A model generated the notes under the pieces. The model saw only the letters and a program-made list of their open reading frames with translations. It had not been told where the DNA came from and searched no databases. A stretch of DNA of 35,157 nucleotides from Serendipita indica DSM 11827. Taxonomy: Eukaryota; Basidiomycota; Agaricomycetes; Sebacinales; Serendipitaceae. The stretch lies in the NCBI GenBank assembly GCA_910890315.1, contig CAJVGD010000057.1, forward strand, positions 1 through 35,157, read 5' to 3'. Both the position numbers and the translations under genes were made by a program. Of this stretch, positions 8,642-35,157 are shown in pieces. Positions within the stretch are counted from its first letter, which is position 1. Every line of letters begins with the position of its first letter.

Positions 8642-8680
8642 CTTTCAGTGGTCAGACTCTACAAACTCTTCGCTCGTCGT

Positions 8681-8949: not shown

Positions 8950-10854
<1,905 letters not shown>

Positions 10855-11735: not shown

Positions 11736-11952
11736 TGACGTGGTGAATTTGAGAGTTGGGAGTAGACTTGGTTGAAAAGACTCGACGCTGGCGAGAGGGT
11801 TTAAGTTGTGTCCTTGAAAGTGACGTCAATCTGCAGAGACGAGCGTCATCATCCCGCCACTTGAAATCGCCGGTAATGTGTCACAAGAGCACCGTGGAGA
11901 ATAAGAATTTAGCAAGCGCGACGCAAAAAGTGGGAAATAATCGTGTTCTACG

Positions 11953-12601: not shown

Positions 12602-12805
12602 GGCCAGAAACGTCAAGGTGTCGTGGTGTTCAAACTTGGAGGAGCAACTGACGGGCATGTCGACGGCCCGAACCAGGGAAATAGACGACCTTTGACATGT
12701 CTTTGATATATTCCTTTGGAAGAATAGAGTGGGCCGGAACATCCACCAGGCTTGACGCCGACCACATCTTTCATCCGAGTCAGACCGCACTGATCATCAC
12801 ACACG
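12602..12805. promoter_or_regulatory. Divergent promoter of mS41 and TMA46
   Basis: Only 204 bp separate the two start codons, which face away from each other, so both promoters must lie within this interval or overlap the leaders. One gene serves mitochondrial translation and the other cytosolic translation. Shared regulation is a reasonable inference, but no specific factor site is identified. Confidence 0.6.
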
Positions 12806-14172
12806 ATGCCTCCAAAGAAACAAAATGCACCGTCTTCATCAAAGGCTCCCGTCGACAAGGTCAGATATGACAACCAGAACCCAACTGCAGGCGCATACTG
12901 ACCAATTGGATACTCTATCATCAATACGATGCACTATATAGACGTTTGGGATGAAGAATGTGTGTGCGAGCATACTTTAGACGACTCGCCGTGTTCACTA
13001 ATCGGTCCGGATCGTGCGCTACAAATCCAGAAAAACAAGTCGGCCAAAGTGCAAAAGTATGTACAGCAAGTACAGAACGAACAAGCTCGAGCTGGCAAGA
13101 CACCGGCTGCTCTGGCCAAGGAGAAAGAGAAAGAATTACGGGCCAAGGAAAAGGCGGCGGAGGAGAAGCGAAAGAAGGAGGAAGCAGAGCTGTTCAAGCC
13201 AGTTCAGGCGGTACAAAAGGTACCGTTTGGTGTTGGTGCGTGTCACGATTCCTCGTTTGCGGCATCTCAGCAGGGCTGTAGATCCCAAGACTGTCCTGTG
13301 TGCCTACTTTAAAGCCGGTACTTGTGACAAGGGGAACAAGTGCAAGTTTAGTCACGACCTAAACGTCGGGAGAAAGGTCGAGAAGAAGGATCTATACAGC
13401 GATGCGCGAGAGGATAAGGAGAACGGTTTGTAGAATCTCTCTATGCGGAAGTTGGCTTACATAAAGTAGATACGATGGATAACTGGGACGAGGAAAAGCT
13501 ACGAAAAGTCGTCCTTTCAAAAGCTGGGAATCCACGGACGACGACCGATATTGTCTGCAAATACTTTATCGAGGCGATTGAGACGAAAAAGTTTGGTTGG
13601 TTCTGGGAGTGTCCGAATGGTACGCAAGATCGTTTCGTCTCCCATCATACACTCACATCTTTATAGGTCAGGACTGCATGTATCGACACGCGCTTCCGCC
13701 AGGCTTTGTACTCAAGTCGGAGAAAAAGGCGCTCGACGATGCGGCCAAGGCGAACACAATCTCTCGAAGAGTTTCTGGAAGTCGAGGTGGGCGATACCAC
13801 TTCAATAGCTCATAGTCTTACATCCACTAGCGGCACAAATTGGGACCGAATCTCACACCCGTGACCCCCGAAACGTTTGCCCAGTGGAAAAAAACTCGAC
13901 TAGACAAGAAGGCTGCAGAGCAAGAAGCGTTGAAAAAGGCAAAGGAGACACAAAATGCTGCTGGTCGCGTAAATGGCATGAGTGGACGAGACCTGTTCGA
14001 CTACCGACCCGAGTGGTTTGAAGAGGAGGATGACGAAGGAGATGCAGAAGATGCAGAAGGTGGTGGATGGGATATTGAGAGGATGCGAAAGGAGACCGAG
14101 GCAGAGGCAGAACGAGAAGAGGAACTACGGATGGAAGAAATGCGAAAGGAGTTTGAAACAACGTCTGTATAA
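12806..14172 (+). CDS. TMA46: CCCH zinc-finger translation factor, TMA46 / ZC3H15 (DFRP1) orthologue
   Basis: Partner of the GTPase Rbg1/DRG1 on ribosomes. Seven exons: 12806-12859, 12942-12959, 13031-13235, 13282-13425, 13470-13619, 13667-13786 and 13831-14172. The product starts MPPKKQNAP. The 18-nt second exon supplies the conserved TFGMKN that joins VDK to [16 protein letters not shown] Lys/Glu-rich coiled coil follows, then two CCCH fingers: [19 protein letters not shown] (C-x8-C-x5-C-x3-H) and a longer-spaced one ending [11 protein letters not shown]. Next come [15 protein letters not shown], the DFRP region [32 protein letters not shown] and an acidic/charged tail. The total is about 345 residues, like yeast Tma46. 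One frame break near 13760 (in the ctctc run, as if one CT were lost) separates NTIS from LEEFLEVE; all other junctions are in frame. Confidence 0.92.
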
Positions 14173-14342
14173 TAGATCATCCTCTCTCCGGGCTTGGGTT
14201 GTCGCCGTTGAGCGCAGGGTACCAGGATCTATTGCAGGTTGAACTCGACACCGTCCGCGTTTCCTGCCAGAGGCCATCGACCGATTGAACAAATACTGAG
14301 GAAACTCAATTTTACGCGTTCAACTCTGTTCAACCACGTATC

Positions 14343-15219
14343 ATGTCTTACGGGCCTCTTGTTGGTCCGAGGACATTCGACAACTTGGAGGGTATTCTCT
14401 CCGGCGAACGCAACGGTGGTTACATCCAGAACTATCTTTCTCTACGGGAGGCGAAGTTCCAGTCCCAGGTCCTCCCTGTGGAGGAACAGCGCGTCATCGT
14501 GAACATGTTCATGCAGGACGACGAGTCGCAGGTACACATTGCTTCTTTCGTATGATCCTATCCTTCATCATGACGAACCATGGACCTGTTCAGTAGAGCC
14601 TGACTTATTACAGGAAGAGCAATCCTAGCCCCGGAGGTGGTTCGCTCTAGCGTTTGTAGAGATACCCCATTCAGAGGATTCGGATGAAACAGAGCAGGAT
14701 TACTCTGCTTCACGTACGACACAGATGCTAGGATGACCGGGCGACTATAAGCTACTGCTCAACTTCTTTCATCACCTATACAACGACTTGAACGACATCA
14801 GCGAGAAGGCTCTGCGACTCGTCAACAATGCCCGAAAGAAACGGAATCTCTCCTATTCGTTGGAGTACCCACGAGCGCACCGGCAAGGCGTACCGCTCGA
14901 GCGGACAGCGAGCCTAAAACAACGGGAATTGCGCAGGGAATTCACGACCTCGCCCGAGAGCAATGAGACTTTAGAGGTAAACAAAGGCTCAAGTGGCCCT
15001 TGCGACGCCACGAATCCGCCAGCGGGAAATGAGGATCACATTGATACAGCTGCCACTATGGAGCCACCCAAGATGTACTCTTTGAGTGCCCAATTGCCTG
15101 CTTTGGAGGATCCAATGCAGTGCAGCACCGGACAGTCCCGGATGAGGTGTGCAGACAGTTACCTAAAGAATCCGGTCTTTGCGTATGTGAAGACAAACAT
15201 AACCGCGACTAGGCCATAG
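14343..15219 (+). CDS. Unrecognised, probably multi-exon or decayed gene
   Basis: An ATG at 14343 opens MSYGPLVGPRTFDNLEG and a well-behaved 60-residue segment. A plausible donor (cag|gtacac) lies near 14530. A second coding-looking stretch in one frame runs from about 14641 (FALAFVEIPHSEDS), meets an in-frame stop near 14734, and resumes DYKLLLNFFHHLYNDLNDIS to a stop at 15217-15219. An unplaced intron may join these parts. The C-terminal part is Ser/Glu/Pro-rich and low in structure. Its last 15 codons run into the DHHC gene fragment that begins near 15175, so the original 3' end has probably been replaced by duplicated sequence. I do not recognise the family. Confidence 0.4.
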
Positions 15220-15500
15220 AATATGGATAAGACGACTGTCAAATGACGGGTGTTAGCCATCGAGTCTATGTACGAGTAGATATAATGTACGACCCTCCAG
15301 GCGGGAAGCCAATGAGAGCATCCGCCCGTCCCTTCCAGCAGCGCAAGAGGATGACGCCCCAGAATACATAGCTACTCCAAGCGAAAAATGATAATACGAC
15401 TGCTACAGTAAACTTGACATCGTCAGGAGTGAGCAATCGCAGCGAGCCTCGACGGAAATAGTAAGAGTGTGTACAAGGAGCGCCAGGCGGGGTTAAATGG
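15175..15500 (-). pseudogene. 5' fragment of the DHHC palmitoyltransferase gene (leftmost remnant)
   Basis: About 320 bp match the first exons and first two introns of the full DHHC gene at 25921-28286. On - they read RGSLRLLTPDDVKFTVAVV, a hydrophobic segment containing AWSSYVFWGVILLRCWK, then GRADALIGFPPGG. The fragment also contains the exon that encodes the second membrane segment. Everything after that (long linker, DHHC core, last two membrane segments) is missing. It is followed by the same flanking sequence (gtgtacaaggagcgccagg) that precedes NLR2 and that occurs at 28488-28520. I interpret it as the left edge of a tandem segmental duplication. Confidence 0.85.
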
Positions 15501-15751
15501 TCGTTCTGGGCTCTTAGCACAATGGGTTTATGGTTACAAATGTAGTATACGTTGACATTCGTGTATGGGAACTGGCAGAACAAGGGTGAAACCGTGCACT
15601 CGTCCCCCTGCTTCGATATTCAATGATGTAGAGTAAATAGATGCAAGTATTCTGTCCATTTTCTGTGATATGCCCCACCAGGAGACAGTCGGCGTCTGAT
15701 AATTCAACCCGAGAGTGACAGACGCCATTCTTGGAACCATCCGCGTTGGCA

Positions 15752-18700
15752 ATGCCACCTCAAAAGTCGACCAAACCAAATCAAGATCTCTCTACTGCTG
15801 CAGGAAGATCTTCAAGCAAGAGGGATCAACTACAAAATGCGGCCAGCATCGCACTGGATGTAATCGCAAATGTAGCAGAGGCGTCGGATATCCTCGCTCC
15901 TCTCACGGCAGCCTGTAGAACAACAAAGTCAATCATAGACGTCAAGCAAGTAAGTAGATACACCCCGAATACCACTGGCTGATCAACTAACAGACCATCG
16001 ATGACAATCAAGGGGACTGGAACGACCTAGTACGCCGCCTGGAGCAATATATGTGGGCTGTCGAGAGCCAAATCGATTCTCTCGAAAAGTATCCTCCTGA
16101 GGATAGGGCTGTCGACGAGGCGTTCAGCCAGCCCCTCATTCATTATGTCGAGTAAGCCGGCACATCAACTCTGGCTCAGTCGACTGATTGATGCAGACTT
16201 CTCGAGGATATTCATTGCGCCATTGTCAATGATGCGCATAACCGACGCCGCACCAGCCGCAATGCTTTTACAGCCATCGGAGATGTGAGGATCGACGCTG
16301 GGATGATTGTTAAATTCAATCAAGAAATCGAGGACCGACATAGGCAATTCATGGTGAGGGCTTCCGGTCATATAGTCAAAATCTGACCTGCGAAATAGGC
16401 CGCTTTGGATCTGTTCATTGGACACCGCGTTCAGGTCATCGAACGGAATACCAAGGCCACCAAGTCGGACGGTAAGCAAGGACTCGCTCAATAAGAGGCT
16501 CGCTAAAATGTCCAAGTCGATGCATCTTTCATATTCCAACTCCCCATGGTGGCATTCGTCCCATCCTCGGTACACACCACCTGTCTACAAGGCACACGTC
16601 AGGCTGTTCTCCAGACAATCCGGAACTGGGCCGAGGACGATACTTCGGATAAGCCAATATTCTGGCTTTGCGACATAGCTGGCTCTGGCAAGTCCACGGT
16701 CGCAATGTCAGTAGCGACGTTGTGCCGCACGGAGAGAACTTTAGGAGGCCAGTTTTTCTTTTCAATGTCCAGTAACGATACGTCGACCACCGAAAAGTTC
16801 TGTTCGACTATGGCAAGATCTTGTCCATCACATTCCAGAACTCGCACCGCACGTCGCCGATACTGTGAAGCGAAATCCTTCGATCATGCGAAGCTCACTT
16901 GAAAAACAGTTCCGCACACTCATCACCGATCCACTCCGCCATCGACAGGAGCGTGTAGTTCTCATTGTCGACGCTATAGACGAGTGCAAATCCGGACCTC
17001 AGCGAAGGGAGCTTCTCGACACGCTCGCTAAAGCCGTTCAAGAAAGCAGGAACGTCAAGATCTTCATTACGAGTCGGCCAGACCCTGTCATCGAATCAGT
17101 TCTTCGGCCACTCTCGATCAAATCTAAACTGGAAGACCGTCTCCACGATATCAAACATCGTGACAACGTGGATGACATCGCGGCCTATGTCCACCAATCA
17201 CTCTACACCGTTCTGCCCCAGGACAAGAGGCAACGGCTGATTGAGAAGTCGAGCGGATTGTTCATCTGGGCCAGTACTGCGTGTCGGATGCTCAATAACG
17301 AGGCCACGTTGGAAAGCCACGAGAGGATATATGATCGCTTAATCTCGGCGGACCAAACTGGAGATATAGATGATGTATACAAACTCATCCTCGAGCGCAT
17401 ACCCCCAGAACACAATGCCATGCTGTGCAATATGCTCGCACTGCTGCTTGCTGCATTCGAACCCCCTACCGTATACGATCTGGACGACATTCTCCAACAC
17501 ACCGGAATAGGCGGGAGTGCCAAGGCGTTGGTCCAAAGCCTTGGAAGCGTTCTTATCGAGGACAAAACAACAAAAACCATTCAATTTCGTCATCCTACTC
17601 TAGTCGAGTATTTGCGACGTCGCTGTATCGCTCAATCCCGAAGCCCGAACAAAGTCTACATCGACATCCACAATGCACATGGGCAGCTTTCGTCGTGGTG
17701 TTTCAATAATCTCGAATCACGAAAGGAAGGACTCAAGTTCAATATATGTGGAGTTGAGTCGTCATTCTACCGAAACCGAGATTTCCTGGATCTGGAGGCG
17801 AGAATATCAAGGTCTATTCGAAGAAACCTTCGATATTCCAGTTTACATTGGCCATTTCATATTGCCCAAGCAGATATCGAGTGGAGAAGCAAGCTCGGAA
17901 ATAAAATCGAGCAGATTATTCGTGCGCCATATGCACTATATTGGATGGAGGTTCTGAGCTTCGTTGGGGGAGTGTCTCGGGCCATTGACGGCCTTCGGGC
18001 CATGATACACAATACAGTGAGTGCCTCATTTCAGTACATTCTTGCCCTTGATTTAACACGACATGAAGACGGAAGAGGAGACTAAGTGTCGTATAACGGA
18101 CTTAAGGCAGTTTATGATGGCATTTTCAGTACCTATTCAAGAAAGTGCACCGCATATCTACATTTCGGCGCTTCCATTCACGCCAACAAGATCTACACTA
18201 CATATTGAGGGCCTAACGATGCATGGAAACACCCTCAATGTGACCAACGGGCGGGAGGAGAGATACCGGGGACTTCCAGAAGCGCTTCGAGGACATACAA
18301 AGTCTGTGACGGCGATCGCATTCTCACCAGACGGCTTGCGAATCCTCTCTGGCTCAGAGGATAATACAATTCGACTATGGGACGCGGAGACTGGTCAGTC
18401 ATTGGGCGAGCCACTGCGAGGTCACACAGGCTCGGTCAATGCCGTCGCATTCTCACCAGACGGCTCCCAAATTGCCTCTGGGTCTAACGATGAGACAATT
18501 AGACTATGGAATGCGGAGACTGGCCAGTCGTTGGGAGAACCATTCCGAGGCCACCAAGGCTCGGTCAATGCTGTCGCATTCTCACCAGACGGCTCCAAAA
18601 TTGCCTCTGGGTCTAACGATGACACAATTCGACTATGGGATGCGGAGATTGGCCAGCCGCTGGGAGAGCCACTTCTAGGCCACACACGGTTGGTCAGCGC

Positions 18701-20433
18701 CGTCGCATTCTCACCAGATGGATCTCGGATTGTCTCTGGCTCATACGATAGCACAATTCGACTATGGGATGCAGACACCGGCCAGACGTTGGGAGAGCCC
18801 CTCTCAGGCCACACAGACTGGGTCACCGCTGTCGCATTCTCACCAGACAGCTCGCGAATCGTCTCTGGCTCCTACGACACCGAAATTCGACTATGGAACG
18901 CGGAGACTGGCCAGCCGTTGGGAGAGCCACTCCGAGGACACACACGCATGGTCAGCACCGTCGCATTCTCACGAGCAGGCTCGCAAATAGTCTCTGGGTC
19001 GGATGATCACACGATTCGACTATGGGATGTGGAGAGTGGTCAGTCATTGGGAGAGCCACTACGAGGCCACACGCGCTTGGTCACCTCTGTTGCATTCTCA
19101 CCAGACGGGTCGCGACTCGTCTCTGGGTCGAATGATCACACGATCCGACTATGGAACGCGGAAACTGGCAAATCGTTGGGACAGTCACTCCACGGCCACA
19201 CAGACACTGTCACTACCGTTGCAATCTCGCCAGGAGGCTTGCAAATGGTCTCTGGGTCGGTGGATAAGACGATTCGACTATGGAATAGGGAGACTGGAGA
19301 GTCAGTGGGAGAGCCGCTCCGAGGCAGTACTCACTCGGTCACAGCGGTCGCATTCTCACCAGACGGCTCGCAAATTGTCTCTAGCTGGAATCAACGCACG
19401 ATTCAACTATGGAACGCGGAGACTGGCCAACCATCGGGAGACCCACTCCAAGGCCATACACATTGGGTCAACTGTTGCATTCTCACCAGACGGCTCGCAA
19501 ATCGTCTCTGGGTCATCAGATAAGACGATCAGATTGTGGAGCGTATCCACTGGCCAGTTGTTGGGCGAACCACTCCAAGGTCACACACAGAGTGTCAATG
19601 CCGTCGCATTCTCACCAGACGGCTCCCAAATTGTCTCTGGGTCAAATGACGAAACGGTTCGGCTATGGAGTGTGGAGAATGGCCAGTCTTTAGGAAGTCC
19701 TCTCCGAGGCCATATATGGGCGGTTCTCGCGGTCGCATTCTCACCGGACGGCCTGAGAATTGTCTCTGGGTCGGGTGATAACACGATTCGCCTATGGAAT
19801 GCGGAGACTGGCCAGTCGTTGGGGGAGCCACTACGAGGCCACACAGGCTTAGTCACCACTGTCGCATTCTCACCAGACGGCTTGCAAATTGTCTCTAGTT
19901 CGTACGATAATACGATTCGACTCTGGGACGCGGAAACAGGCCAGTCTTTAGGAGAGCCACTACGAGGCCACACAAACTCGGTCAATGCCGTCGCATTCTC
20001 TCCAGATGGCCTACAAATCATGTCAGGCTCAACCGACTGCACAGTTAGGCTGTGGGACGCAGCATTTGGTTCGTTTCACTTCATTTCCTTTTCACCGTGA
20101 CGCCAAAAGCTCATAGATCTCCTAGTTGAGGTATTCTTAAAGTCGGGATGGTTCCCTGAGCCGCTCAAATCAGAGTGGCATCATCTTCGATCAAAATTCC
20201 ATGGCTTCACTCAGAGCCATGCTCTGAGCTTCGAATATTTCCTCTCTGATGATGGTTGGGTGCATCTCTCCGGGAAACTTCTATTCTGGGTACCACCAAA
20301 CAATCGGCTCGCACTAGCGGCCCGCTACTGCTAACCATGCCGACGTCCAGCCCTCCCTACCCAACCAAAATAGATTTCACTGTTTCGAGGTGGCGCCTCT
20401 TGGACAAAAGTTCGGGGTGGCGTCAATCAATGA
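15752..20433 (+). CDS. NLR1: helical N-domain - NACHT - 14 WD40 - C-terminal module (STAND receptor)
   Basis: Predicted cytosolic STAND ATPase of the fungal NLR (NWD) type. ATG 15752 begins MPPQKSTKPNQ. Exon 1 (15752-15949, canonical gtaagt donor) and exons starting at 15994 and about 16196 encode an N-terminal helical domain of about 190 residues (ASIALDVIANVAEASDILAPL, later LLEDIHCAIVNDAHNRR). It resembles the MLKL/HeLo-like helical domains on fungal NLRs, by inference only. NACHT: Walker A GSGKST at 16681-16698, FFFS block, Walker B LIVDAIDECK near 16955-16986, ITSRPDP sensor near 17067, and a winged-helix region. An intron near 18013-18085 (gtgagt) precedes FMMAFSVPIQES and 14 repeats of 43 residues. 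The C-terminal module DDGWVHLSGKLLFWVPP lies at about 20250-20310, ending at 20433. The frame slips near 16440-16540, 16822, 19472 and 20098, mostly as if one base were lost. Confidence 0.85.
18291..20096 (+). repeat. WD40 array of NLR1: 14 x 129 bp
   Basis: Each unit encodes 43 residues of the form GHT-x2-V-x-AVAFSPDGS-x2-SGS-x-D-x-TIRLW, ending TGQSLGEPLR. Starts are spaced exactly 129 bp apart. The repeats are related but individually diverged (GHTKSV, GHTGSV, GHQGSV, GHTRLV, GHTDWV, GHTRMV, GHTDTV, GSTHSV and so on). Fourteen units would allow two seven-bladed propellers. Confidence 0.93.
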
Positions 20434-20604
20434 ACTGTAGTGAGCGAGAACAGGATCATGATTTTACTCTCATGCTTGCGAGTCTCAGCTAGTAAGCCCC
20501 ATCGTCTTGCGGTCCAAACATCCTGGGATGAATAGTTCCATACCATGACCATCGTGTTCAATCCGTACCTGTTCGTATTCTGGAACAGCTATATGTCGGA
20601 AACA

Positions 20605-21240
20605 TATTCTCATGTTTGACTGTTTCCTTCGTCCTCCGTGTCATCTTCTTGGAGACCGACCGACTCGTGCGTGAGTCGTTTCGATACTGGGCCGACATTC
20701 CGATCCAGCTGCATTGTGTGATAGAGCGTGGACAATTGCAGGTACTGGTCTTGATGCGGGCGCAACTGCAGGTTCTGTCAAGGCACTGCCCAGTGGGTCG
20801 GGTGGCGGGTCAGAGGCTAGAGGCGGGTCGCTCTTTCTGACAAAATCCCGGGCGAAACCCGGTCCAGTGAATATTATCTGAAATTCCTGTCAGAGATATA
20901 TTAGGGAAAGAGCGAGAAATGCCGACCTTTGTGTATGTGAACAAACATAGCGGCGAATAGACAATAGAATATGGATAAGACGCCTGTCAAATGACGAATA
21001 TTGGCCATCGAAGTTGCATGCGAGTAGATATAATGTACGAACCTCCAGCCGGAAAGCCAACGAGAGCGTTTGCTCGTCCCTTCCAGCAGCGCAAGAGGAT
21101 GATGCCCCAGAATACATAGCTAATCCAGGCGAATAGCGCTATGGCAACTGCTACGGTAAACTTGGCATCGTCAGGAGTGAGCAATCGCAGCGAGCCTCGA
21201 CCGGGAATAGTGTACAAGGAGCGCCAGGCCGGGCTCAATG
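20605..21240 (-). pseudogene. 5' fragment of the DHHC palmitoyltransferase gene (middle remnant)
   Basis: This is colinear with 27672 to about 28255 of the full DHHC gene. On - it holds GSLRLLTPDDAKFTVAVA, AWISYVFWGIILLRCWK, GRANALVGFPAGG, the second membrane exon, the third intron and the start of the Pro/Ser-rich linker exon (the ggtgggtcgggtggcggg stretch near 20793-20815). Homology ends at about 20611, inside the linker, where the NLR1 3' flank begins. The DHHC catalytic core is absent. Its sequence across the RCWK...FPAGG region is better preserved than in the full-length copy, which makes it useful for judging base-level errors there. Confidence 0.87.
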
Positions 21241-21538
21241 GTCGTCGTGGGCTCTTAGCATAATAACTCTATGGATACAACTGTAGTATATTTTGATATT
21301 CACGTATGCAAACACGCAGAAACGGGGTGAAACTAAGCAGTCGCCCACTGCCTCGACAGTAGATGATGCAGAATAAGCAGATGCAAATATTTTGTCCATT
21401 TTCTGTGATATGTCCCACCAGGAGACAGTCGGCCTCTGGGCCAAGGTTGATGGTCGATGTGCTGCCTGTTGTTGCCCAGCTCGCAGAACACGCGGGCGAG
21501 AGTGGCAGGCGCCGTCCTTGGAGCCATCCACTTTGACA

Positions 21539-24500
21539 ATGCCACCTCGAAAGTCGACCAAACCGAATCAGAGTCCTCTACTGCTGCAGGGAGATCTTCA
21601 AGAAAGAGGATCAGTTACAAACAACGGCCAGTATCGCACTGGATATAGTCGCAAATGTAACAGGGGTGTCGGATATCCTCGCTCCTCTCACGGCAGCCTG
21701 CAAAACAACAAAGTCGATCATTGATGTCAAGCAAGTAGACGCGCCCGGAATAGCACTGGCTGATCAACTGACAGACTATCGACGATAATCAAGGAGACTG
21801 GAACGACCTAGTACGCCGCCTGGAGGAATATATGTGGGCTATTGAGAGCCAAATCGACTCTCTCGAAAAGTATCCTCCAGAAGATAGAGTCGTCGACGAA
21901 GCCTTTAGCCAGCCACTCATTCGTTATGTCGAGTAAGTCGGCACATCAACTCTGGCCCTGCCGACTGATTTCCTCAGACTTCTCGAGGATATTCATTGCG
22001 CGATCGTCAATAATGCGCATAAGAGACCTCGCACCAGGCGCAGTGCTGTTATGGCCATCGGGAATGTGAAGATTGACGCTGGACTCATTCGCAAGTTCAA
22101 TCGAGATATCGAGGACCGGCATAGGCAGTTCATGGTGAGATTCTCAGGCCATATAATCGTAATCTCACATGCAAAATAGGAGGCGTTGGCTCTTTTCACA
22201 GGTCATCGTATCCAGGTCATCGAACAGCACACTAAATCGACAGCGGCCAAGGTTGAAACAATCGTCTCGGACAGTAAGCTAAGACTTGTCTATAGACGCC
22301 TCGCTAAACACCCCAAGTCGATGCATCTTTCATATGCCAACTCCAGGTCGTGGCATTCGTCCCGTCCTCAGTCCATAGCACCTGTTTACAAGGGACTCGT
22401 CTGGATGTTCTCGAGAAAATCAAGACATGGGCCGAAGACGATACATCTGATAAACCAATATTCTGGCTCTGCGACGTAGCCGGTTCGGGCAAATCCACCG
22501 TCGCAATGTCGGCAGCGGAGACGTGGCGTGCGGAGGGAACCCTCGGAGGCCAGTTCTTCTTTTCAATCGCAAACAGCGAGACGTCGAATACCGAAAAGTT
22601 CTGCTCGACGAAAGCGGGTAGTTCTCATCGTCGACGCCGTGGATGAATGCAAATCCGGACCGCAACGAAGCGAACTTCTCGACACGTTCGTCAAAGCCGC
22701 TCGAGAAAGCAGGAATCTCAAGATCTTCATTACCAGTCGGCCAGACCCTGTAATTGAATCAGTTCTTCAGCCACTCTCAATTAAATCCAAGCTCGAAGAT
22801 CGGCTCCACGATATCACTTACCGTGACAACATGGATGACATCGCCACCTATGTCCATGAATCACTCTACACCGTTCTGCCCGAGGACAAGCGGCAACAGC
22901 TCATTGAGAAGGCGCACGGATTATTCATCTGGGCGAGCACCGCATGTCGAATGATCAATAGCAAGACAGCATGGGACACCCCCGAGACTATATACGACTG
23001 GTTGACTTCGGTGGACCAAAGTGGAGATATAGACGATGTATACAAGCTCATTTTTGAGCGCGTAGACCCCAGATTCCACACGGTCATGTGCGGCATGCTG
23101 GCACTACTGCTTGCCGCATTCGAACCACTGACCGCCAACGACCTCGACAACATTCTTAAGCATATCGGACTACGCGGATACTCCGATGCGTTGATTCGGA
23201 ACCTTGGAAGTGTCATATACAGGACAAAGCAACAAAAGTTATTCAATTTCGTCATCCGACTCTTGTTGAGTACCTGCAACGCTGCTATGACACTCCAGTC
23301 CCCGAAGAATCAAGCAGCATCTACATCAACATTCACGATGCACATGGTCAAATTGCGTCGTGGTGCTTCAGTAACCTTCAATCGACAGGAGGACTCAAGT
23401 TCAACGTATGTGAAATCGAGTCGTCGTTCTATCGAAACCGAGATCTACCGGATCTAGAGGCGAGTATCCAAGTTTATTGGAAGAAACCTTGGATATTCCA
23501 GTTTACATTGGCCGTTTCATATGGCCCAGGCGGATAGTAATTGGAGAAGCAAGCTCAGAAATGAGCTTAGGCAGATGATTCGGATCCCATACATATTATA
23601 CTGGATGGAGGTGCTGAGCTTCATCCAAGGGGTTCCTCGAGCTATAGATGGCCTTCGGGCTATGACTCGAGATACTGTGAGTGCCTTATCTCGACACATG
23701 CTCATTGATTGACACGAATAAAAGACTGAGAAAGAGACAAGAAGTCGCATAATGGATGTGAGACGATTTATGATGGCATTTTCAGTACCTATTCAAGAGA
23801 GTGCTCCACATATCTACGTCTCGGCGCTTCCATTCACTCCTATAGAATCATACCTGCATATGGAGGGCTTAGATATGTATAAGGGCACTCTCAAGGTGAC
23901 AAAAGGGCTCGAACAGAGATACCGAGGACTTCCAGAAGCACTTCGTGGACATACAGAAGTGGTCGAGACAGTCGCATTTTCACCAGACGGCTCGCGAATC
24001 GTCTCTGGGTCGTGGGATCAGACAATTCGACTATGGGATGCGGAGACTGGCCAGTCGTTGGGAGAGCCACTCCGAGGCCACACAGGCCCGGTCACCGCCG
24101 TCGCATTCTCACCAGACGGCTCGCGAGTCGTCTCTGGTTCGGATGATCAGACGATTTGACTATGGGATGCAGAGACTGGCCAGTCGTCGGGAGAGCCACT
24201 CCGAGGCCACACAGGCGCGGTCACCGCCCTCGCATTCTCACCAGATGGCTTGCGAATCGTCTCTGGGTCGTGGGATGACACAATTCGACTATGGGATGCA
24301 GAGACTGGCCAGTCGTTGGGAGAGCCACTTCGAGGCCACACAGGCGAGGTCAGCGCCGTCGCATTCTCACCAGACGGCTCGCGAATCGTCTCTGGGTTGT
24401 GGGATCACACAATTCGGCTATGGGATGCAGAGACTGGCCAGTCGTTGGGAGAGCCACTTCGAGGCCACACAGGCGAGGTCAGCGCCGTCGCATTCTCACC

Positions 24501-25709
24501 AGACGGCTCGCGAATCGTCTCTGGGTCGGATGATCAGACGATTCGACTATGGAATGCAGAGACTGGCCAGTCGTTGGGAGAGCCACTTCGAGGCCACACA
24601 GGCGAGGTCAGGGCCGTCGCATTCTCACCAGACGGCTCGCGAATCGTCTCTGGGTCATGGGATAATACGATTCGACTATGGAATGCGGAGACTGGCCAGT
24701 CGTCGGGAGAGCCACTTCGAGGCCACACAGGCGAGGTCAGCGCCGTCGCATTCTCACCAGACGGCTCGCGAATCGTCTCTGGCTCGTGGGATGACACAAT
24801 TCGACTATGGGATGCAGAGACTGGCCAGTCGTTGGGAGAGCCACTTCGAGGCCACACAGGCCCGGTCAGCGCCGTCGCATTCTCACCAGACGGCTCGCGA
24901 ATCGTCTCTGGCTCGTGGGATGACACAATTCGACTATGGGATGCAGAGACTGGCCAGTCGTTGGGAGAGCCACTTCGAGGCCACACAGGCGAGGTCAGCG
25001 CCGTCGCATTCTCACCAGACGGCTCGCGAATCGTCTCTGGGTCGTGGGATCACACAATTCGGCTATTGGATGCAGAGACTGGCCAGTCGTTGGGAGAGCC
25101 ACTTCGAGGCCACACAGGCGAGGTCAGGGCCGTCGCATTCTCACCAGACGGCTCGCGAATCGTCTCTGGGTCATGGGATAATACGATTCGACTATGGAAT
25201 GCGGAGACTGGCCAGTCGTCGGGAGAGCCACTCCGAGGCCACAGTGGTGTGGTCAACGCCGTCGCATTCTCGCAAGATAGCTTCCTAATTATGACCGGCT
25301 CTGCAGACTCCACAGTTAGACTGAGTGACACCGCGTTCGGTTCGTTCCACTTTACCCCTGTTTCACCGTCATGCTTTAAGCTCACAAATTCCCCTAGTTC
25401 AGCCATCTAGTCCGAATGGTCACCTGAGCCACTCAACTGAGGGCAGCATCATCTCGCATCAAAACTTCATGGCCTTACTCAGAGTAATTCTCTCCCATAT
25501 TCGAAGATTTCCTCTCTCTGATGATGGTTGGGTGCATCTCTCCGGTAAACTTCTGTTCTGGGTACCACCAGACAATCGGCTCTCATTAACGTCTCCATTA
25601 CTGCTCACTATACCGACATCCAGCCCTCCTTACCCCACAAAAATTAGATTTCACACGGTTTGAATACGGCTCTTCTTGGACAAACGTTCGAGGCAACGTC
25701 AATCAATGA
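21539..25709 (+). pseudogene. NLR2: decayed NACHT-WD40 receptor copy with 11 WD40 repeats
   Basis: Colinear paralogue of NLR1: same start (MPPRKSTKPNQ at 21539), same first-intron position (near 21733-21776), LLEDIHCAIVNN exon, Walker A GSGKST at about 22485-22500, Walker B LIVDAVDECK near 22623-22655, ITSRPDP near 22728, FMMAFSVPIQES near 23765 and C-terminal DDGWVHLSGKLLFWVPP at about 25520-25570. The damage exceeds that in NLR1. The first exon is out of frame. About 134 bp between Walker A and Walker B (the NLR1 segment around 16810-16945) is missing. A TGA at 24157-24159 interrupts WD40 repeat 2, and the C-terminal module is in another frame. The missing NACHT segment is not a one-base artefact, so I judge this a real pseudogene or defective allele. 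Its WD40 array nevertheless looks recently homogenised. Confidence 0.85.
23947..25365 (+). repeat. WD40 array of NLR2: 11 x 129 bp, near identical
   Basis: Eleven 129-bp units encode GHTGEVSAVAFSPDGSRI-type repeats. Units 4-10 differ at only a handful of nucleotides, mostly at residues 5 (E/P/A), 7 (S/R/T), 23 (W/D), 25 (D/N/H/Q) and 31 (D/N), with one S/L switch at 38. The last unit is diverged (AFSQDSFLIMTGSADSTVRL), as expected of a terminal unit that escapes exchange. Because no stop occurs in a second frame, a 447-codon shadow frame spans the array; it is not a gene. Confidence 0.94.
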
Positions 25710-25920
25710 ACTGTAGCGAGCGAGAACAGGATCATGATTTTACTTTCGTACTTGCGAGACTCAGCTAGTAAGCTCCATCGTCTTGCGGGTCCAAATGTTC
25801 GGGGATAAATTGTTCCACACAATGATCATCGTGTCCAAACTGTACCCGTTCATATTCTAGACCAGCTATATATCAAAAATATAATCCCAGATCTATAAAT
25901 CATGCGAGTCCATGGGATCG

Positions 25921-28286
25921 TCACCGAAGCTCCAGGGGCCAATCTCGTCTTCTCATCCATCGGCCCCGCTCATCGAAACGCGGGTTGAGCGGATAATCAA
26001 GACCAGCACGCGAGGTGTCGCCAATCGGCACTTTGGTATTGTAAGCCATTTGAATCTCAACATGGAAGAGAATACGTACGAAACCATGTCCATGGATTAT
26101 GTCCCATGACCGCCTCCCAGTTGGCACGACCAGATCCCAACCTACCCAATCGTCAGGAAGGAAAACGATAGGAATAAAGACGCACCACCACAAATTTCCC
26201 TCCTTGCCTATTCTGCCCCACTCCTCGTCCCACCGCTCCCGCAGTGCCTTTCTCCCTTTGAACCCAGCTGGAAGTCCCAGTTCCTTGACAGCATCACCCG
26301 CACCACTGCGCCAAGGAGAGTCATCTTTTCGTCCTAAGAGCCCTCCATTCTCATGCGAACCCATTCCAAGACATTGACAGACAGGAATCGCCTGACTCAG
26401 CACGGCTCGTTCGCGTTCTCGCATATTTTGTATGCCATGCCATTCGACCGTACTCGCGTTTCGACGGAGGAGATGAACATGCGTGAAGAGCATACCGGAT
26501 GAGAAGAGGCAGAGCAGTCCAGAGATGATGATGAGTGCGAGAAAGTTGCCGTCTATACCAATACTATCAAATGTTGCTGGTGCATTTGATGGGATATGAG
26601 TTCCGGTCGCTTTTTGCACAATGGCCGCGATGAGAAGGCCAATTGTGTAGAGAAGATAGAGGGTGCACCAGAAGAGAAAGACAACGAAGAACTAGTAATG
26701 GTCAGTCGCGTCCACAAGCGTCATAGAGTCTGACCAACCTTTCGATTTTGCGCTCCTACACATCCACCAATCCATGGACAGTGATGGTCATAGCCTAGAA
26801 CACACTACAAAGGTTAGTACGTCTTCTCCTGCGACGACGAACAGGGCTCACTGTGTTGCATATCCGACAATGATGTGCTCTCATCGGTTTGATAATCATA
26901 TCTCTCGAGCAATATCGGTAATATGGATCCAGGATTGGCATATCAGATGGCCTTCGACTCCATCTCGACAAAATAGGTGGCAAGTCGTCTAAATATGGCT
27001 GAGGTCGTGCAATCTCATCTTCTCCGAACGGCTCTGTCCGGCCGCTTACATCAAAATTTGGATGACGCGCAGACGGAGCGAGGCCAGGCGTAGGCATAGC
27101 CGAAGCAGAAGGCGTCGGCATCGTCGTAGGGACATTTGGCGTCTTGACACCAGACTTGGAATTGGTTCGTGAGTGCGTTTGCGAAGAGAGTCTCGGAGGT
27201 TCAAAGATGTAGGATGACGATTCGAATCGATAGCCGCTCGTGCCCGTCTTGATAGGCGGAGGACGCTTGGTCATTGTGGATGGGAAAGAGGAAAGTCCGG
27301 GCGATGCTGGAGGCGAGTTGGACTGGTGGCTACTCAAGCTATTACCACGGGTAATCTTGAGCGGTTTCGACTTTTGAGTCTTGATAGACTCTGTCGGTCG
27401 AGTTTCAGCAGACACTCGTGATGATGAGAAGGATGGTTTTGGTTGGGACTGGGTCGGGGTTGGGATCGAATTTGCGCTAGTCCGTTTCGAGTCTTTACGG
27501 AGAACGGCGGGCTTGGGTTGCGATATACCATTCGGAGACGTAGGCGTCGTCGGAGAATGTGGTTCAGTCTGTTCTCGGATGGTATGAGGTGTCGGTGGAA
27601 TGGCCGTTGTGCTGCCGGAGCGAGTATGTCCATTCGGACGTACGCTCATGGCTTCATATGGAACACCGATAGTTTGACTGTTTCCTTCGTCCTCCATGTC
27701 GTCTTCTTGGAGACTGGCCGATTCGTGGGTGAGTCGTTCCTCGATACTGGGCCGATATTCCGATCCAGCTGCATTGTGTGATGGAGGGTAGACAATTGCA
27801 GGCACTGGTCTTGATGCGGGCGCAGCTGCAGGTTCTGACAAGGCACTGCCCAGTGGGTCGGGTGGCGGGTCAGAGGCCAGAGGTGGGTCGCTCTTGGTGA
27901 CAAAATCCATGGCGAAACCTGGTCCAGTGAATATTATCTGAAATTACTGTCAGATGCATCCGAGAAAGAGCGAGAAATGCCGACCTTTGTGTATGTGACG
28001 ACAAACATAACGGCGAATAGGCCATAGAATATGGATAAGACGACTGTCAAAAGACGAATATTAGCCATCGAGGTTGCGTACGAGTAGATATAATGTACGA
28101 ACCTCAGCCGGAAAACCAACGAGGCATCCGCTCGTCTCTTCCAGCAGCGCAAGAGGATGATGCCCCAGAATACATAGCTACTCCAGGCGAATAGTGCTAT
28201 GACGACTGCTACGGTAAACTTGGCGTCGTCAGGAGTGAGCAATCGCAGCGAGCCTGGGCCTCGTACTGACCTTCCGCTCTAGCCAT
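25921..28286 (-). CDS. DHHC-type palmitoyltransferase (PFA family)
   Basis: Integral-membrane S-acyltransferase that attaches palmitate to cysteines of membrane-associated proteins. Exons on -: first exon ending 28103 (LLTPDDAKFTVAVV, first membrane segment), 28043-27985 (second membrane segment, LSIFYGLFAVMFVVTYTK), 27937-26852, 26804-26739 and 26691-25921. The large exon is a Pro/Ser/Thr-rich cytosolic linker of over 300 residues ending RYCSRDMIIKPMRAHHCRICNT. The 22-residue exon carries the catalytic GYDHHCPWIGGCVG. The last exon has two membrane segments (FFVVFLFWCTLYLLYTIGLL and NFLALIIISGLLCLFSSGML), then STVEW, the TTxE equivalent, and ends RRDWPLELR. About 700 residues. The 5' end is uncertain: the ATG at 28286 is not in frame with LLTPDD without another splice, and the RCWK-to-FPAGG stretch lacks two bases present in both duplicated fragments. 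The core exons are clean. Confidence 0.9.
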
Positions 28287-28700
28287 GGTTTAGGCCCCGT
28301 ACGCCGTCTGTCCTTTCGTCTGCCTTGCTATTGCAACTTCGAAGGAAGTGGAGATGCATGAGCACGGATTGCTGGATTTTGCGTGTGCTCGCCGCTTTGC
28401 AGACTTTGTCGTGGACTTGGTGCGGTTGGTGTGCGTCGAGGTCGACATGAACGACGACCGGAATAGCAGCTGACGCTGGAGGGCGTGTACAAGGAGCGCC
28501 AGGTCAAATGGATCCGTCGTGGTAGACTCTAAGCCAGGGTTTGTGATGCATCTGTTAACTGCGATAGGCCTGATTGCCATTTATGGTAATTGACTACAAG
28601 CCCCATATGTAGACTTCTAGTGAGTACGCTGCGTCATAGTGGCGCATCATAGTGGCCCATCTTGACCACTTACTCTGTCGTTTTCCACTTGGTTTTGGAC
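28287..28700. other. Spacer with 5' flank of the DHHC gene
   Basis: The segment 28488-28535 (gtgtacaaggagcgccaggt onward) matches the flank next to both DHHC fragments at about 15473 and 21211, so it marks the outer limit of the duplicated unit. The roughly 230 bp between it and 28255 are absent from both fragment copies. A - strand frame (28290-28580), Ser/Thr/Lys-rich, might be part of the DHHC 5' exon or leader. No separate gene is supported. Confidence 0.5.
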
Positions 28701-30873: not shown

Positions 30874-31195
30874 CCTCGCTCGTCAACGAGGTCTTGAATG
30901 ATCTTTGATGAAATGGACACCATGATTTAGAATAGTGTATTCGTAAATTGTACATGGCAACAAGGACAATGACTTTTGGGAATAGAATTGATAAATTAAT
31001 CAAGCTAACAATAGGAGTAAATGGCAACAGCAGAATGCGCGACCCATGGCTCGATAGATATACTCCTCACCATGCTGTAGGTGACAACGATGCGTTCAAG
31101 GGGTTCTCGCTTCCTGGACCTCTATCGACGCGCACGTGAACTTTGATATGTATTGAATCGAGATGCCGAATCTTGTTGCGCTCACCCGATACATA
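30874..31195. other. Intergenic between surface-protein gene and NLR3
   Basis: The two genes converge here, so the stretch should hold both 3' untranslated regions and terminators. It is AT-richer than its surroundings (30930-31010). No coding or RNA signal is seen. Confidence 0.4.
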
Positions 31196-34100
31196 TCATT
31201 GATTAATGCCGTCTCGGACTTTTGTCCATGAAGGGCCACAGTGGAAATGAGCGAAGTCGAGTTTGGTCGGGTAGGGAGGGTTGGACGTTGGTAAGTTGAG
31301 GAGGAGTGGAGACGCTAATGAGAGCCGATTATCTGGTGGAACCCAAAATAGAAGCTTCCCTGAGAGATGCACCCAACCGTCATCAGAGAGAGTAAATGTT
31401 CGGAGCTGGGAAAGCATAACTTTCAATAAAGCCAGGGTATTTTGATGCGAGATAAGGCCATCCTGGATTGACTGGCTCAACTGACCATTATGGTTGGATA
31501 ACTCGGCTACGGGAATTTGTAAGCTTCCGGCATCACGGGGGGAAAAGGAATGAAGAGAAGAACCAAATGCGGTGTTCCATAGTGCATTTGTGCTGCCAGC
31601 CGGAACCGACGTGATTTCCAAGCCGTCTGGTGAGAATGCAACGGCGCCTCCCAGTCTGTGTGGCCTCGGGTGGGTCTCCCAACGACTGTGTCTCCATTCC
31701 ATAGTCGAATCGTATTATCATCCGAGCCAGAGACGATTCGCGAGCCGTCTGGTGAATGCGACGGCCCTGACCCAGTTTGTGTGGCCTCGGAGTGGGTCTC
31801 CCAACGACTGGCCCGTCTCCGCATTCCATAGTCGAATCGTCTTATCATCGAGCCAGAGACGATTCGCGAGCCGTCTGGTGAGAATCGACGGTGACCGAGT
31901 TTGTGTGGCCTCAGGTGGGTCTCCAACGACTGGCCCGTCTCCATCCCATAGACGAATCGTGTCATCATGTGAGCCGGAAACAATTCGCGAGCCGTCTGGT
32001 GAGAAGGCGACGGCAGTGACGGAGTCTGTATGTCCTTGAAATGGCTTTCCCAGTAACTGGCCAGTATCTACATCCCATAGTCGAATCGTTTCATCATTTC
32101 CGCCAGACGCGATTCGCGAGCCATCAGGTGAAAAGGTTATGGCCACGATGGAGCCCTTATGTCCCCAAAGTGGCTTCCCCAGCGACTGGCCAGTCTCGGG
32201 ATTCCATAGTCGAATCGTCTCATCTCTGGAGCCAGAGGCAATTCGGGAGCCATCTGGTGATAACGCAACTACCCAGACGCGCCGTGTATGTCCTTGAAAC
32301 GGCCTTCCCAACGGATGGCCGGTCGTTACATCCCATAATCGAATCGTATGATCGTGCGAGCCAGAGACGATTCGCGAGCCGTCTGGTGAGAATGCGACGG
32401 GTGACCAGTTTGTGTGCCTCGGGTGGGTCTCCCAACGACCCGTCTCCGCATTCCATAGTCGAATCGTGTTATCATCCGAGCCAGAGACGATTCGCGAGCC
32501 GTCTGGTGAGAATGCGACGGCGGTGACCGAGTTTGTGTGGCCTCGGAGTGGGTCTCCCAACGACTGGCCCGTCTCCGCATTCCATAGTCGAATCGTGTTA
32601 TCCCACGAGCCAGAGACGATTCGCGAGCCGTCTGGTGAGAATGCGACGGCGCTGACCCAGTTTGTGTGGCCTCGGAGTGGGTCTCCCAACGACTGGCCCG
32701 TCTCCGCATTCCATAGTCGAATCGTGTGATCGTGCGAGCCAGAGACGATTCGCGAGCCGTCTGGTGAGAATGCGACGGCGGTGACCCAGTTTGTGTGGCC
32801 TCGGAGTGGGTCTCCCAACGACTGGCCCGTCTCCGCATTCCATAGTCGAATCGTGTTATCCCACGAGCCAGAGACGATTCGCGAGCCGTCTGGTGAGAAT
32901 GCGACGGCCCTGACCGAGTTTGTGTGGCCTCGGAGTGGGTCTCCCAACGACTGGCCCGTCTCCGCATTCCATAGTCGAATCGTCTTATCATCCGAGCCAG
33001 AGACGATTCGCGAGCCGTCTGGTGAGAATGCGACGGCCCTGACCCCAGGCCTCTGTGTGGCCTTGGAGTGGGTCTCCCAACGACTGGCCCGTTTCCCCAT
33101 TCCATAGTCGAATCGTGTTATCCCACGAGCCAGAGACGATTCGCGAGCCGTCTGGTGAGAATGCGACGGCGGTGACCCGGTTGTGTGGCCTCGGTGGGTC
33201 TCCCAACGACTGGCCCGTCTCCGCATTCCATAGTCGAATCGTATGATCATGAGCCAGAGACGATTCGCGAGCCGTCTGGTGAGAATGCGACGGCTGACCG
33301 GGTTTGTGTGGCCTCGGTGGGTCTCCCAACGACTGGCCCGTCTCCGCATTCCATAGTCGAATCGTCTATCATCCGGAGCCAGAGACGATTCGCGAGCCGT
33401 CTGGTGAGAATGCGACGGCCCTGACCGAGTTTGTGTGGCCTCGGAGTGGGTCTCCCAACGACTGGCCCGTCTCCGCATTCCATAGTCGAATCGTGTGATC
33501 GTGCGAGCCAGAGACGATTCGCGAGCCGTCTGGTGAGAATGCGACGGCGCTGACCCAGTTTGTGTGGCCTCGGAGTGGGTCTCCCAACGACTGGCCCGTC
33601 TCCGCATTCCATAGTCGAATCGTGTTATCCCACGAGCCAGAGACGATTCGCGAGCCGTCTGGTGAGAATGCGACGGCCCTGACCGAGTTTGTGTGGCCTC
33701 GGAGTGGGTCTCCCAACGACTGGCCCGTCTCCGCATTCCATAGTCGAATCGTGTGATCGTGCGAGCCAGAGACGATTCGCGAGCCGTCTGGTGAGAATGC
33801 GACGGCGGTGACCGAGTTTGTGTGGCCTCGGAGTGGGTCTCCCAACGACTGGCCCGTCTCCGCATTCCATAGTCGAATGGTATGATCGCCCGAGCCAGAG
33901 ACGATTCGCGAGCCGTCTGGTGAGAATGCGACGGCGGTGACCGAGCTTGTGTGGCCTCGGAGTGGTTCTCCCAACGACTGGCCCGTCTCCGCATCCCATA
34001 GTCGAATCGTATTATCATACGATCCAGAGACAATGCGTGAGCCGTCTGGTGAAAATGCGATTGCCGTGACTATTTGTATGTCCCCGAAGCGCTTCTGGAA

Positions 34101-35157
34101 GTCCCCGGTATGTCTTCTCCAGCCCTCTAGTCACTTTGAGTGTTCTTATACATATCTAACCCCTCAATATGCAGATGCGATTCTGTAGGTGTGAACGGAA
34201 GCGCCGAGATGTAGATATGCGGAGCACTCTCTTGAATAGTACTGAAAATGCCATCATAAACCGCATCACTTCACTTATGCGGCTCTTAGCCTCTTTTCAA
34301 CCTTTCCTTTGTTAAAAATGCGATATGTGAGGCGAGCCACTCACAGTATTGCGCGTCACAGCTCGGAGCCCACTGATAGCTCTAGCCACGCCTCCAACAA
34401 GGCTTAGGATCTCCATCCAATATAGTACATGTGGAATTCGAATAATCTCTTGCAGTTTATTTCTGAGCTGGTGTCTCCATTTGCTATCCGTTTCGGCCAT
34501 ATGAAACGGCCAGTGTAAACTCGCATATCGAACGTTCATTCTGATGAACTTTGATATTCTTGCCTCTAGATCCGGCATCTCTCTGTTTCGATAGAAGGAC
34601 GACTCGATTTCACATATATTGAACTTGAGGCCTTCCTTCGGTGCTTGAAGATTATTGAAACCCCACGATGCAATTTGACCGTGCGCATTGGCGATATCTA
34701 TATACATTCCACTCGGCTCTTTGAGGTCTGGGCCTAGACAGCGCCGTCGCAGATATTCCACAAGAGTAGGGTGACGAAACTGAATGACTTTTGTTGCTTC
34801 ATCTTCGATAAGAACACTTCCAGTTTCGAATCAACCCTGGAATTTCCCCGTAGTCTGCTATGCGAGAGAATATTATCAAGATCCTCGGCGGTAAGTGGTT
34901 CGAATGCAGCGAGGAGTAGCAAGCATGCTCCACATGATGGTATGGTATTTGGGATCTGTCCTCTCGAAGATGAGTTTGTATACCTCGTCGATCTCTCCAG
35001 TTTGGTCCGCTAGACCAACGAATATATATGCTCTCAGGCGCTTCCCATGTCGTTTCATTGTTGATCATCCGACATGCGGTACTGGCAGATGAACAACCCG
35101 CTCGACTTCTCAATCAGCCGTTGCCTCTTGTCCTGGGGCAGAACGGTGTAGAGTGAT
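31196..35157 (-). CDS. NLR3: NACHT (partial) - 20 WD40 - C-terminal module, truncated by window end
   Basis: Inverted relative to NLR1 and NLR2. The window edge at 35157 falls inside the NACHT (SLYTVLPQDKRQRLIEKS, the same segment as NLR1 residues encoded near 17195-17250), so the Walker motifs and N-domain lie outside. Then come the winged-helix/linker region (LLLAAFEPLTAEDLDNIL, VEYLRRRC, SFYRNREMPDLEARI), an intron with a gtgagt donor near 34340, RGLPEALRG and 20 WD40 units. The C-terminal module is clean and continuous: SDDGWVHLSGKLLFWVPP at about 31345-31398, then PTSNPPYPTK and the stop at 31196-31198. Unlike NLR1 and NLR2, whose 3' ends are out of frame, NLR3 shows the natural end. Frame changes occur inside several WD40 units (for example near 31755-31920, 32400-32440 and 33170-33400). 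Collapse or misassembly of near-identical repeats may contribute. Confidence 0.85.
31560..34084 (-). repeat. WD40 array of NLR3: 20 units of about 129 bp
   Basis: Twenty occurrences of the SPDGS codons (gagccgtctggtga on +) were counted, mostly spaced 129 bp. Some spacings are 119-131 because of small indels. Most units carry the signature GHTNSV/GHTNWV with LGDPLR, distinct from the GHTGEV/LGEPLR signature of NLR2. The variable residues are again 4-5, 7, 23 and 25 (W/H/D/G/Y and N/H/K). Units nearest the C-terminus (31960-32360) are diverged (GHTRRVWVVALSPDG, GHKGSIVAITFSPDG). One + frame and one extra - frame stay open across much of the array and are shadows. Confidence 0.93.

What the first reader, a model, noticed from the sequence alone, without database searches (positions are those of the whole stretch)
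15175..28286. Tandem NLR-DHHC duplication with stepwise loss of the palmitoyltransferase
The same gene pair (NLR on +, DHHC acyltransferase on -) was duplicated in tandem. The NLRs were kept at least in outline, while the DHHC copies were pared down: complete at right, about 630 bp of 5' end between the NLRs, and about 320 bp at the left edge. The breakpoints can be read directly: the NLR1 3' flank joins DHHC sequence equivalent to 27672 at about 20605-20613. This gives a relative order of events for a growing immune-receptor cluster.
Basis: partly seen in the sequence, partly recalled or inferred. Interest (0 to 1): 0.72.

Follow-up and report, generated by a model that had tools for sequence, protein, structure and literature searches.

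The report
NLR array carrying broken palmitoyltransferase scraps
A cluster of fungal receptor genes of the self/non-self recognition type grew beside a palmitoyltransferase gene, and the receptor copies carry short dead pieces of that neighbour, which look like passenger debris more than a working gene pair lost step by step.

Summary
Two NLR genes (NACHT plus WD40 repeats) lie in tandem. Fragments of 273 and 584 bp match, colinearly, the 5' part of the complete minus-strand DHHC gene at 25921-28286. Four contigs of this 24.7-Mb fungal assembly carry the array, with both junctions at the same place, so a single-contig misassembly is excluded. Tail-to-tail NLR-DHHC adjacency is older than the array: three dispersed NLR loci end in a DHHC 3' remnant.

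One complete copy of this DHHC gene was found. Both array fragments lack the same ~230 bp beside the gene's 5' exon. The middle junction fits a duplication breakpoint as well as a later deletion. The NLR1-NLR2 core is more diverged (dS ~0.67) than flanks or fragments (0.07-0.23), so one duplication clock fails. NLR2, beside the complete DHHC, has a NACHT deletion in all four contigs, frame-breaking in the two read. A third, inverted NLR at 31-35 kb is, on the longer contig C43, a chimera of NLR1 and the dispersed clade. Best reading: a recombining, allorecognition-type NLR cluster carrying dead pieces of its neighbour.

The parts
15177..15449 (-). dL: 5' fragment of the DHHC gene, upstream of NLR1
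   Evidence: 88.6% to 27985-28255; present in 4 of 4 contigs
15450..15751 (+). X1: NLR1 upstream region
   Evidence: 15450-15756 is 80.5% to 21198-21545; inferred start codon at 15752
15752..20097 (+). NLR1: N-terminal region, NACHT (Pfam NPHP3_N/NACHT), 14 WD40 units
   Evidence: Pfam; ORFs; unit count; carries frame breaks, some absent from C43
20098..20612 (+). 3' flank of NLR1, ending at the junction
   Evidence: 82.0% to 25408-25889
20614..21197 (-). dM: 5' fragment of the DHHC gene between the NLRs
   Evidence: 91.0% to 27672-28255; junction identical in 4 of 4 contigs; frame changes inside it
21198..21545 (+). X2: NLR2 upstream region
21546..25407 (+). NLR2: broken NACHT-WD40 gene; deletion between the Walker A-like and Walker B-like stretches, joint at 22605-22609; 11 WD40 units here, 5 on C43
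   Evidence: same gap in 4 of 4 contigs; frame changes across it on C55 and C43
25408..25889 (+). 3' flank of NLR2, tail-to-tail with DHHC
   Evidence: colinear through 25943 in C36, C37 and C9
25921..28286 (-). Complete DHHC palmitoyltransferase gene (open stretches: TM1-2 27937-28278; long exon 26798-27943; DHHC exon 26724-26804; C-terminal exon 25924-26691; putative start codon 28284-28286)
   Evidence: Pfam DHHC; open stretches; exon borders and start codon are inferences
28485..28545 (.). Short stretch resembling NLR upstream region X, right of DHHC
   Evidence: local alignment score 40-41, best of 300 shuffles 31-33
31170..35157 (-). NLR3: inverted third NLR, cut by the contig end; on C43 the whole gene is chimeric

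Best explanation
This is a recombining cluster of NACHT-WD40 fungal NLRs built next to a single DHHC palmitoyltransferase gene. An NLR came to lie tail-to-tail with the DHHC gene. Later tandem and ectopic duplications copied NLR units with breakpoints inside the neighbouring DHHC gene, so copies carry DHHC pieces as passengers: 5' pieces upstream of NLR1 and NLR2 here, and a 3' piece downstream of the dispersed NLRs on C36, C37 and C9. The complete DHHC gene stayed single; its pieces were non-coding at or soon after birth and decay. The NLRs keep exchanging sequence: NLR3 joins an NLR1-like front half to a dispersed-clade back half, WD40 unit number differs between contigs, and the NLR1 and NLR2 cores are far more diverged than their flanks. 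Shown: homology, junctions, four-contig sharing, remnants at three other loci, NLR3 chimerism, the NLR2 deletion shared by four contigs. Inferred: breakpoints rather than later deletions, absence of a functional NLR-DHHC partnership, role in non-self recognition, and that the four contigs are haplotypes of one locus.
For: The DHHC body (26000-27660) is complete on C55 and C43 only; otherwise 3' pieces at C36, C37 and C9. The 5' part (27672-28255) was found only in the array contigs, 11 matches. The three dispersed remnants are frame-broken and share flanks with each other. dL and dM lack the same ~230 bp beside the gene's 5' exon. Junctions at the same place in 4 of 4 contigs. NLR2 deletion in 4 of 4 contigs. 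NLR3 on C43: 87.9-98.5% to NLR1 in the ten 200-column windows starting at columns 0-1350, then 71.1-81.5% to NLR1 and 84.7-98.0% to the dispersed clade in the seven windows from column 1650; the window at 1500 is intermediate. AU test rejects the alternative in both halves (p = 0.0014 and 6e-5). NLR1-NLR2: core dS 0.67, omega 0.24 (468 codons), exons 1+2 dS 0.35 (118 codons), exons 3+4 dS 0.80 (77 codons), flanks K2P 0.21-0.23, dL-dM 0.163. WD40 units: NLR2 11/5/11 (C55/C43/C54), NLR3 20/26 (C55/C43). A 419-bp member of a repeat family sits inside dM on C43.
Against: The fragments are nested (dL lies within the span of dM), which is also what stepwise trimming would give. No outgroup copy of the DHHC 5' region was available, so the ~230-bp difference cannot be polarised: it could be an insertion in the complete gene. 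dL-dM (0.163) is larger than either distance to the complete gene (0.116, 0.075); this fits a slow functional copy but does not group dL with dM. Frames were compared on C55 and C43 only: most breaks in NLR1 and NLR3 fall at different places on the two and may be assembly errors; a frame change near 18057-18085 of NLR1 is on both and may be an intron; the DHHC long exon is open on C55 but broken on C43. So intact NLR1, NLR3 and DHHC genes are not proven on any one contig. Intergenic divergence below dS could partly reflect constraint.
Confidence: 0.6

Rival explanations
1. One reading: whole NLR-DHHC units were duplicated in tandem, the extra DHHC copies were complete at first, and they were then trimmed by deletion (1.78 kb from the middle one, nearly all of the left one together with its NLR).
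For: The missing part of dM is one clean interval equivalent to 25890-27671. dL is nested within dM. NLR-DHHC tail-to-tail adjacency predates the array. The array could have held three units, the leftmost lost.
Against: No remnant of a leftmost NLR in 1-15176: no DNA match in the self-BLAST and 0 tblastn hits at E up to 1 with three NLR protein queries without the WD40 repeats. dL and dM share the ~230-bp gap next to the 5' exon. Segment ages disagree.
Confidence: 0.27
2. The DHHC enzyme is a working partner of the NLR: it palmitoylates the receptor or its target, and the gene pair is maintained by selection.
For: NLR and DHHC sequence lie tail-to-tail at the array and at three other loci. A mammalian NLR, NLRP3, is reported to be controlled by S-acylation (PMC11392533, seen as search listing and start of abstract only).
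Against: At 3 of 3 dispersed loci the DHHC piece is frame-broken and no credible match to the catalytic exon was found in the stretch held. The NLR beside the complete DHHC carries the NACHT deletion in all four contigs.
Confidence: 0.05
3. The array or its junctions are assembly artefacts of repeat-rich sequence.
For: Contigs carry frameshifts at places where another contig reads on, for example in WD40 arrays, so base-level quality is doubtful.
Against: Both junctions lie at the same place in 4 of 4 contigs that differ from each other by up to 3.2% per segment outside and 7.4% inside the WD40 repeats.
Confidence: 0.03

Closest known systems
NWD family of Podospora anserina (HET-D, HET-E and relatives; NACHT-WD40 STAND proteins)
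   Same: NACHT plus very similar WD40 units; unit number differs between alleles; variation concentrated at four positions of the unit. In NLR3 on C43 these are 10, 12, 28 and 30 of my 43-residue register, which equal codons 7, 9, 25 and 27 of Paoletti et al. 2007 shifted by 3; the codons that the paper reports under purifying selection, 8 and 26, fall on my 11 and 29, which do not vary in the 20 units kept. Broken family members with preserved WD40 units also occur there (PMC1805685, passages read).
   Different: No HET domain found: residues 1-221 match no Pfam family at E up to 0.05. Members sit in a local array with DHHC debris. NLR3 also switched parent upstream of the repeats. The four-position pattern is less clear in the 8 units listed for NLR1 (C43) and for NLR2 (C55). 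Incompatibility function is untested.
NLR clusters of Sordariales fungi (PMC12258605, passages read)
   Same: Clusters of two to five NLRs; [quoted passage not shown]
   Different: There only 16 of 272 clusters consisted of paralogous copies; here the three NLRs are close paralogues and exchange between copies is visible.
DHHC (PF01529) palmitoyltransferases
   Same: The DHHC exon and the C-terminal membrane part match PF01529.
   Different: An ordinary gene family in fungi (recalled); further PF01529 matches lie on C1, C2, C6 and C40 of this assembly. Nothing seen here sets this gene apart except its neighbours.

Membership tests
Fungal NACHT-WD40 NLR (NWD-like) | NACHT nucleotide-binding domain | tested here: met
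   NLR1 piece: NPHP3_N 5.7e-13 and NACHT 2.6e-6; the Walker A-like motif is read from the translation, its name recalled
Fungal NACHT-WD40 NLR (NWD-like) | C-terminal WD40 repeats with high internal identity | tested here: met
   Pfam WD40, 9 stretches each in the NLR1 and NLR2 pieces; 129-bp units
Fungal NACHT-WD40 NLR (NWD-like) | Variation concentrated at four positions of the WD40 unit | tested here: met
   NLR3 on C43: of 26 units, 21 matched the strict pattern, one frame-broken unit was dropped, 20 kept; the four positions hold 521 of 652 pairwise amino-acid-changing codon differences. Counts only, no likelihood test of selection; pattern less clear in NLR1 and NLR2
Fungal NACHT-WD40 NLR (NWD-like) | Recognised N-terminal effector domain (HET, HeLo, MLKL-like) | tested here: inconclusive
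   No Pfam hit at E up to 0.05 in residues 1-221; MLKL-like N-termini are described for basidiomycete NLRs (PMC9815663, passages) but were not tested for here
Fungal NACHT-WD40 NLR (NWD-like) | Control of vegetative incompatibility | not testable with these tools
   Needs genetics
DHHC palmitoyltransferase | DHHC cysteine-rich domain with catalytic motif and flanking membrane part | tested here: met
   Motif in the open stretch 26724-26804; C-terminal exon 6e-7 to PF01529. Open stretches intact on C55; C43 shows a frame break in the long exon
Conserved functional NLR-DHHC gene pair | Both partners intact at independent loci | tested here: not met
   0 of 3 dispersed loci keep more than a frame-broken 3' DHHC remnant in the stretch held; the NLR next to the complete DHHC has a NACHT deletion in 4 of 4 contigs

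The most novel reading that the evidence does not exclude
The locus is an active receptor-shuffling site: between its copies and dispersed family members it swaps whole receptor halves (NLR3 front from NLR1, back from the dispersed clade) as well as WD40 units, and four co-existing haplotypes keep different versions. The DHHC scraps would then be natural tracer marks that record duplication breakpoints at a fungal non-self-recognition locus.
Probability: 0.3. Interest if true: 0.55.

Novelty: new member of a known kind. Interest (0 to 1): 0.38.

Why it matters
Fungal NLR clusters are thought to diversify by unequal exchange. Here neighbour-gene scraps give visible breakpoints, four contigs of one assembly allow comparison, and one receptor is a clear two-parent chimera. 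It also warns against reading conserved adjacency of an NLR and an enzyme gene as a functional pair: the adjacency can be inherited debris.

Tried and rejected
A functional NLR-DHHC pair: not kept as main reading because the DHHC remnants at three other loci are broken and NLR2 is damaged. An empty site or single-pair allele: the left flank (12500-15176) matched only the same four contigs and the right flank (28256-28936) only C55 and C43; none was found in this assembly. A lost leftmost NLR: no trace in 1-15176, nor right of DHHC in 28256-31160, by tblastn with three NLR queries that left out the WD40 repeats. Rooting the DHHC 5' fragments: no copy of that region outside the array contigs was found. 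Naming the DHHC gene's relatives through solved structures: no hit at E up to 0.01 for the C-terminal exon, the only part tried. Telomere check by four exact TTAGGG units: none in the assembly, so no claim of a subtelomeric place. Naming the organism: not attempted with any tool. Papers linking fungal NLRs and DHHC enzymes: searches (7 papers, all listed; 25 papers, 10 listed) showed no title on a fungal NLR-DHHC pair; nothing more is claimed. No structure prediction was run.

Failed calls: my coordinates held a stop codon; partly redone; script stopped at the last of ten pairs, nine printed; time limit; redone with a simpler count. In one search the front-half tree left out C36a and C9m (9 of 11 rows), which lack that part, and alignment columns 1500-1650 were left out of both trees.
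Full report
What was checked. The window is the whole of contig C55 (35157 bp) of a 24.7-Mb, 55-contig assembly. Self-BLAST confirms the elements of the finding: NLR1 and NLR2 are colinear at about 79%, and two DHHC pieces (273 and 584 bp) match the 5' part of the complete gene at 89-91%. The middle junction lies between 20612 and 20614.

The array is real and shared. Three further contigs, C43 (170 kb), C54 (26.5 kb) and C42 (24.2 kb), carry the same array. Outside the WD40 repeats they agree at 96.8-100% per segment, within them at 92.6-99.8% (the C43 comparison in the NLR2 repeats covers only ~600 columns). Both junctions are at the same place in 4 of 4. The complete DHHC gene is present on the two contigs that reach it, C55 and C43; C54 ends at the equivalent of 25872 and C42 at 23197. 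They look like haplotypes of one locus; segmental duplicates cannot be excluded. C42, and in most segments C54, show more small gaps, and frames break at places where another contig reads on, so I judged gene damage only where contigs agree.

Age of the NLR-DHHC adjacency. A search of the assembly with the DHHC body (26000-27660) found the complete stretch on C55 and C43 only, plus 68-75% pieces on C36, C37 and C9. At all three the piece lies tail-to-tail with an NLR, and homology runs through the NLR 3' flank to 25943, just inside the DHHC 3' end. In each, only residues ~34-192 of the C-terminal exon are recognisable, with frame changes, and the three loci share further flank with each other. 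So the adjacency is older than the array, and there too the DHHC is debris, kept from its 3' part where the array keeps the 5' part. The 5' region (27672-28255) gave 11 matches, all in the four array contigs.

How the fragments arose. dL and dM both stop at the same point of the 5' exon and continue into the NLR upstream region X. In the complete gene about 230 bp (28256-28484) lie between that point and a ~60-bp stretch that resembles X (score 40-41 against at most 33 in 300 shuffles). A putative start codon lies in those 230 bp (inference). The shared gap suggests one already defective ancestor of dL and dM; an insertion in the complete gene is not excluded. Distances: dL-dM 0.163, dL-gene 0.116, dM-gene 0.075. 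The middle junction can be a 1.78-kb deletion or simply the joint of a tandem duplication with ends at 25889 and 27672; the sequence cannot tell them apart. A plain NLR-DHHC duplication does not place a DHHC piece left of NLR1, and no remnant of a lost NLR was found there.

Divergence along the unit is uneven. NLR1 against NLR2: upstream region 0.23, 3' flank 0.21 (K2P), exons 1+2 dS 0.35 (118 codons), exons 3+4 dS 0.80 (77 codons), NACHT-to-WD40 core dS 0.67 with omega 0.24 (468 codons). For two dispersed loci the relation is reversed: C36 and C37 are 95% alike in the NLR stretch compared but 86-87% in the 3' flank. So in the array either the ends were homogenised or the cores were replaced; one duplication date does not fit.

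State of the receptors. NLR2 lacks a stretch between the Walker A-like and Walker B-like motifs, with a 5-bp overlap at the joint, in 4 of 4 contigs, and the reading frame changes across it on C55 and C43, the two whose frames were read. NLR1 on C43 reads openly through the NACHT region; C43 and C55 both show breaks in the WD40 part, at different places, and both show a frame change near 18057-18085 that may be an intron. NLR3 lies inverted at 31170-35157. On C43, where all of it is present, it is a chimera: windows starting at alignment columns 0-1350 follow NLR1 (87.9-98.5%), and those from 1650 follow the dispersed clade (84.7-98.0%, NLR1 71.1-81.5%). Trees of the two parts conflict and the AU test rejects the alternative placement in each (0.0014; 6e-5). 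Its repeats also break frame once on C43. The switch lies near the place where the window contig ends, so the window shows only the back half.

Comparison. The WD40 units resemble the NWD family of Podospora. Of 26 units of NLR3 on C43, 21 matched a strict pattern and 20 were kept after one frame-broken unit was dropped; 521 of 652 pairwise amino-acid-changing codon differences fall on positions 10, 12, 28 and 30. With a shift of 3 these are codons 7, 9, 25 and 27, reported under positive selection in the Podospora WD40 units (PMC1805685, passages). In NLR1 (C43) and NLR2 (C55), 8 units each, other positions vary as much. Unit numbers: NLR1 14/14/13/13 on C55/C43/C54/C42 (the two values of 13 each contain a double-length gap), NLR2 11/5/11 on C55/C43/C54, NLR3 20/26 on C55/C43. 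High internal repeat conservation is known in basidiomycete NLRs (PMC4986451, passages), and clustering with exchange is proposed for Sordariales (PMC12258605, passages).

Verdict. The story of a palmitoyltransferase pared down step by step remains possible, but passenger fragments of a single neighbouring gene in a recombining NLR cluster fit the evidence better.

Noticed in passing
31170-35157 (minus); whole gene on C43, about 25300-31262 (minus): Third, inverted NLR; on C43 a chimera of an NLR1-like front half and a dispersed-clade back half.
   Followed up: yes
L010:5018-5436 (C43:15018-15436): A 419-bp member of a repeat family (27 matches in the assembly, itself included) sits inside the dM fragment on C43; TG...CA ends and a possible 5-bp target duplication, read by eye, suggest a solo LTR.
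   Followed up: partly
WD40 arrays 18278-20060, 23931-25300, 31600-34100: WD40 unit number differs between contigs for NLR2 and NLR3; variation in NLR3 on C43 is concentrated at four positions that match those reported for the Podospora NWD family.
   Followed up: yes
452-1593: Minisatellite of ~36-bp units, copies 60-93% alike to a reference copy, near the contig end.
   Followed up: no
5852-6370 and 7574-8641 (minus): Carboxylesterase-family pieces; 5888-6262 and 8270-8641 are 74% alike, suggesting a small duplication.
   Followed up: no
9181-11232 (minus): IMP dehydrogenase matched in two pieces near the cluster.
   Followed up: no
28937-30551 (plus): ORFs between DHHC and NLR3, the first Ser/Gly-rich; no Pfam hit at E up to 0.01 for the first.
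   Followed up: no
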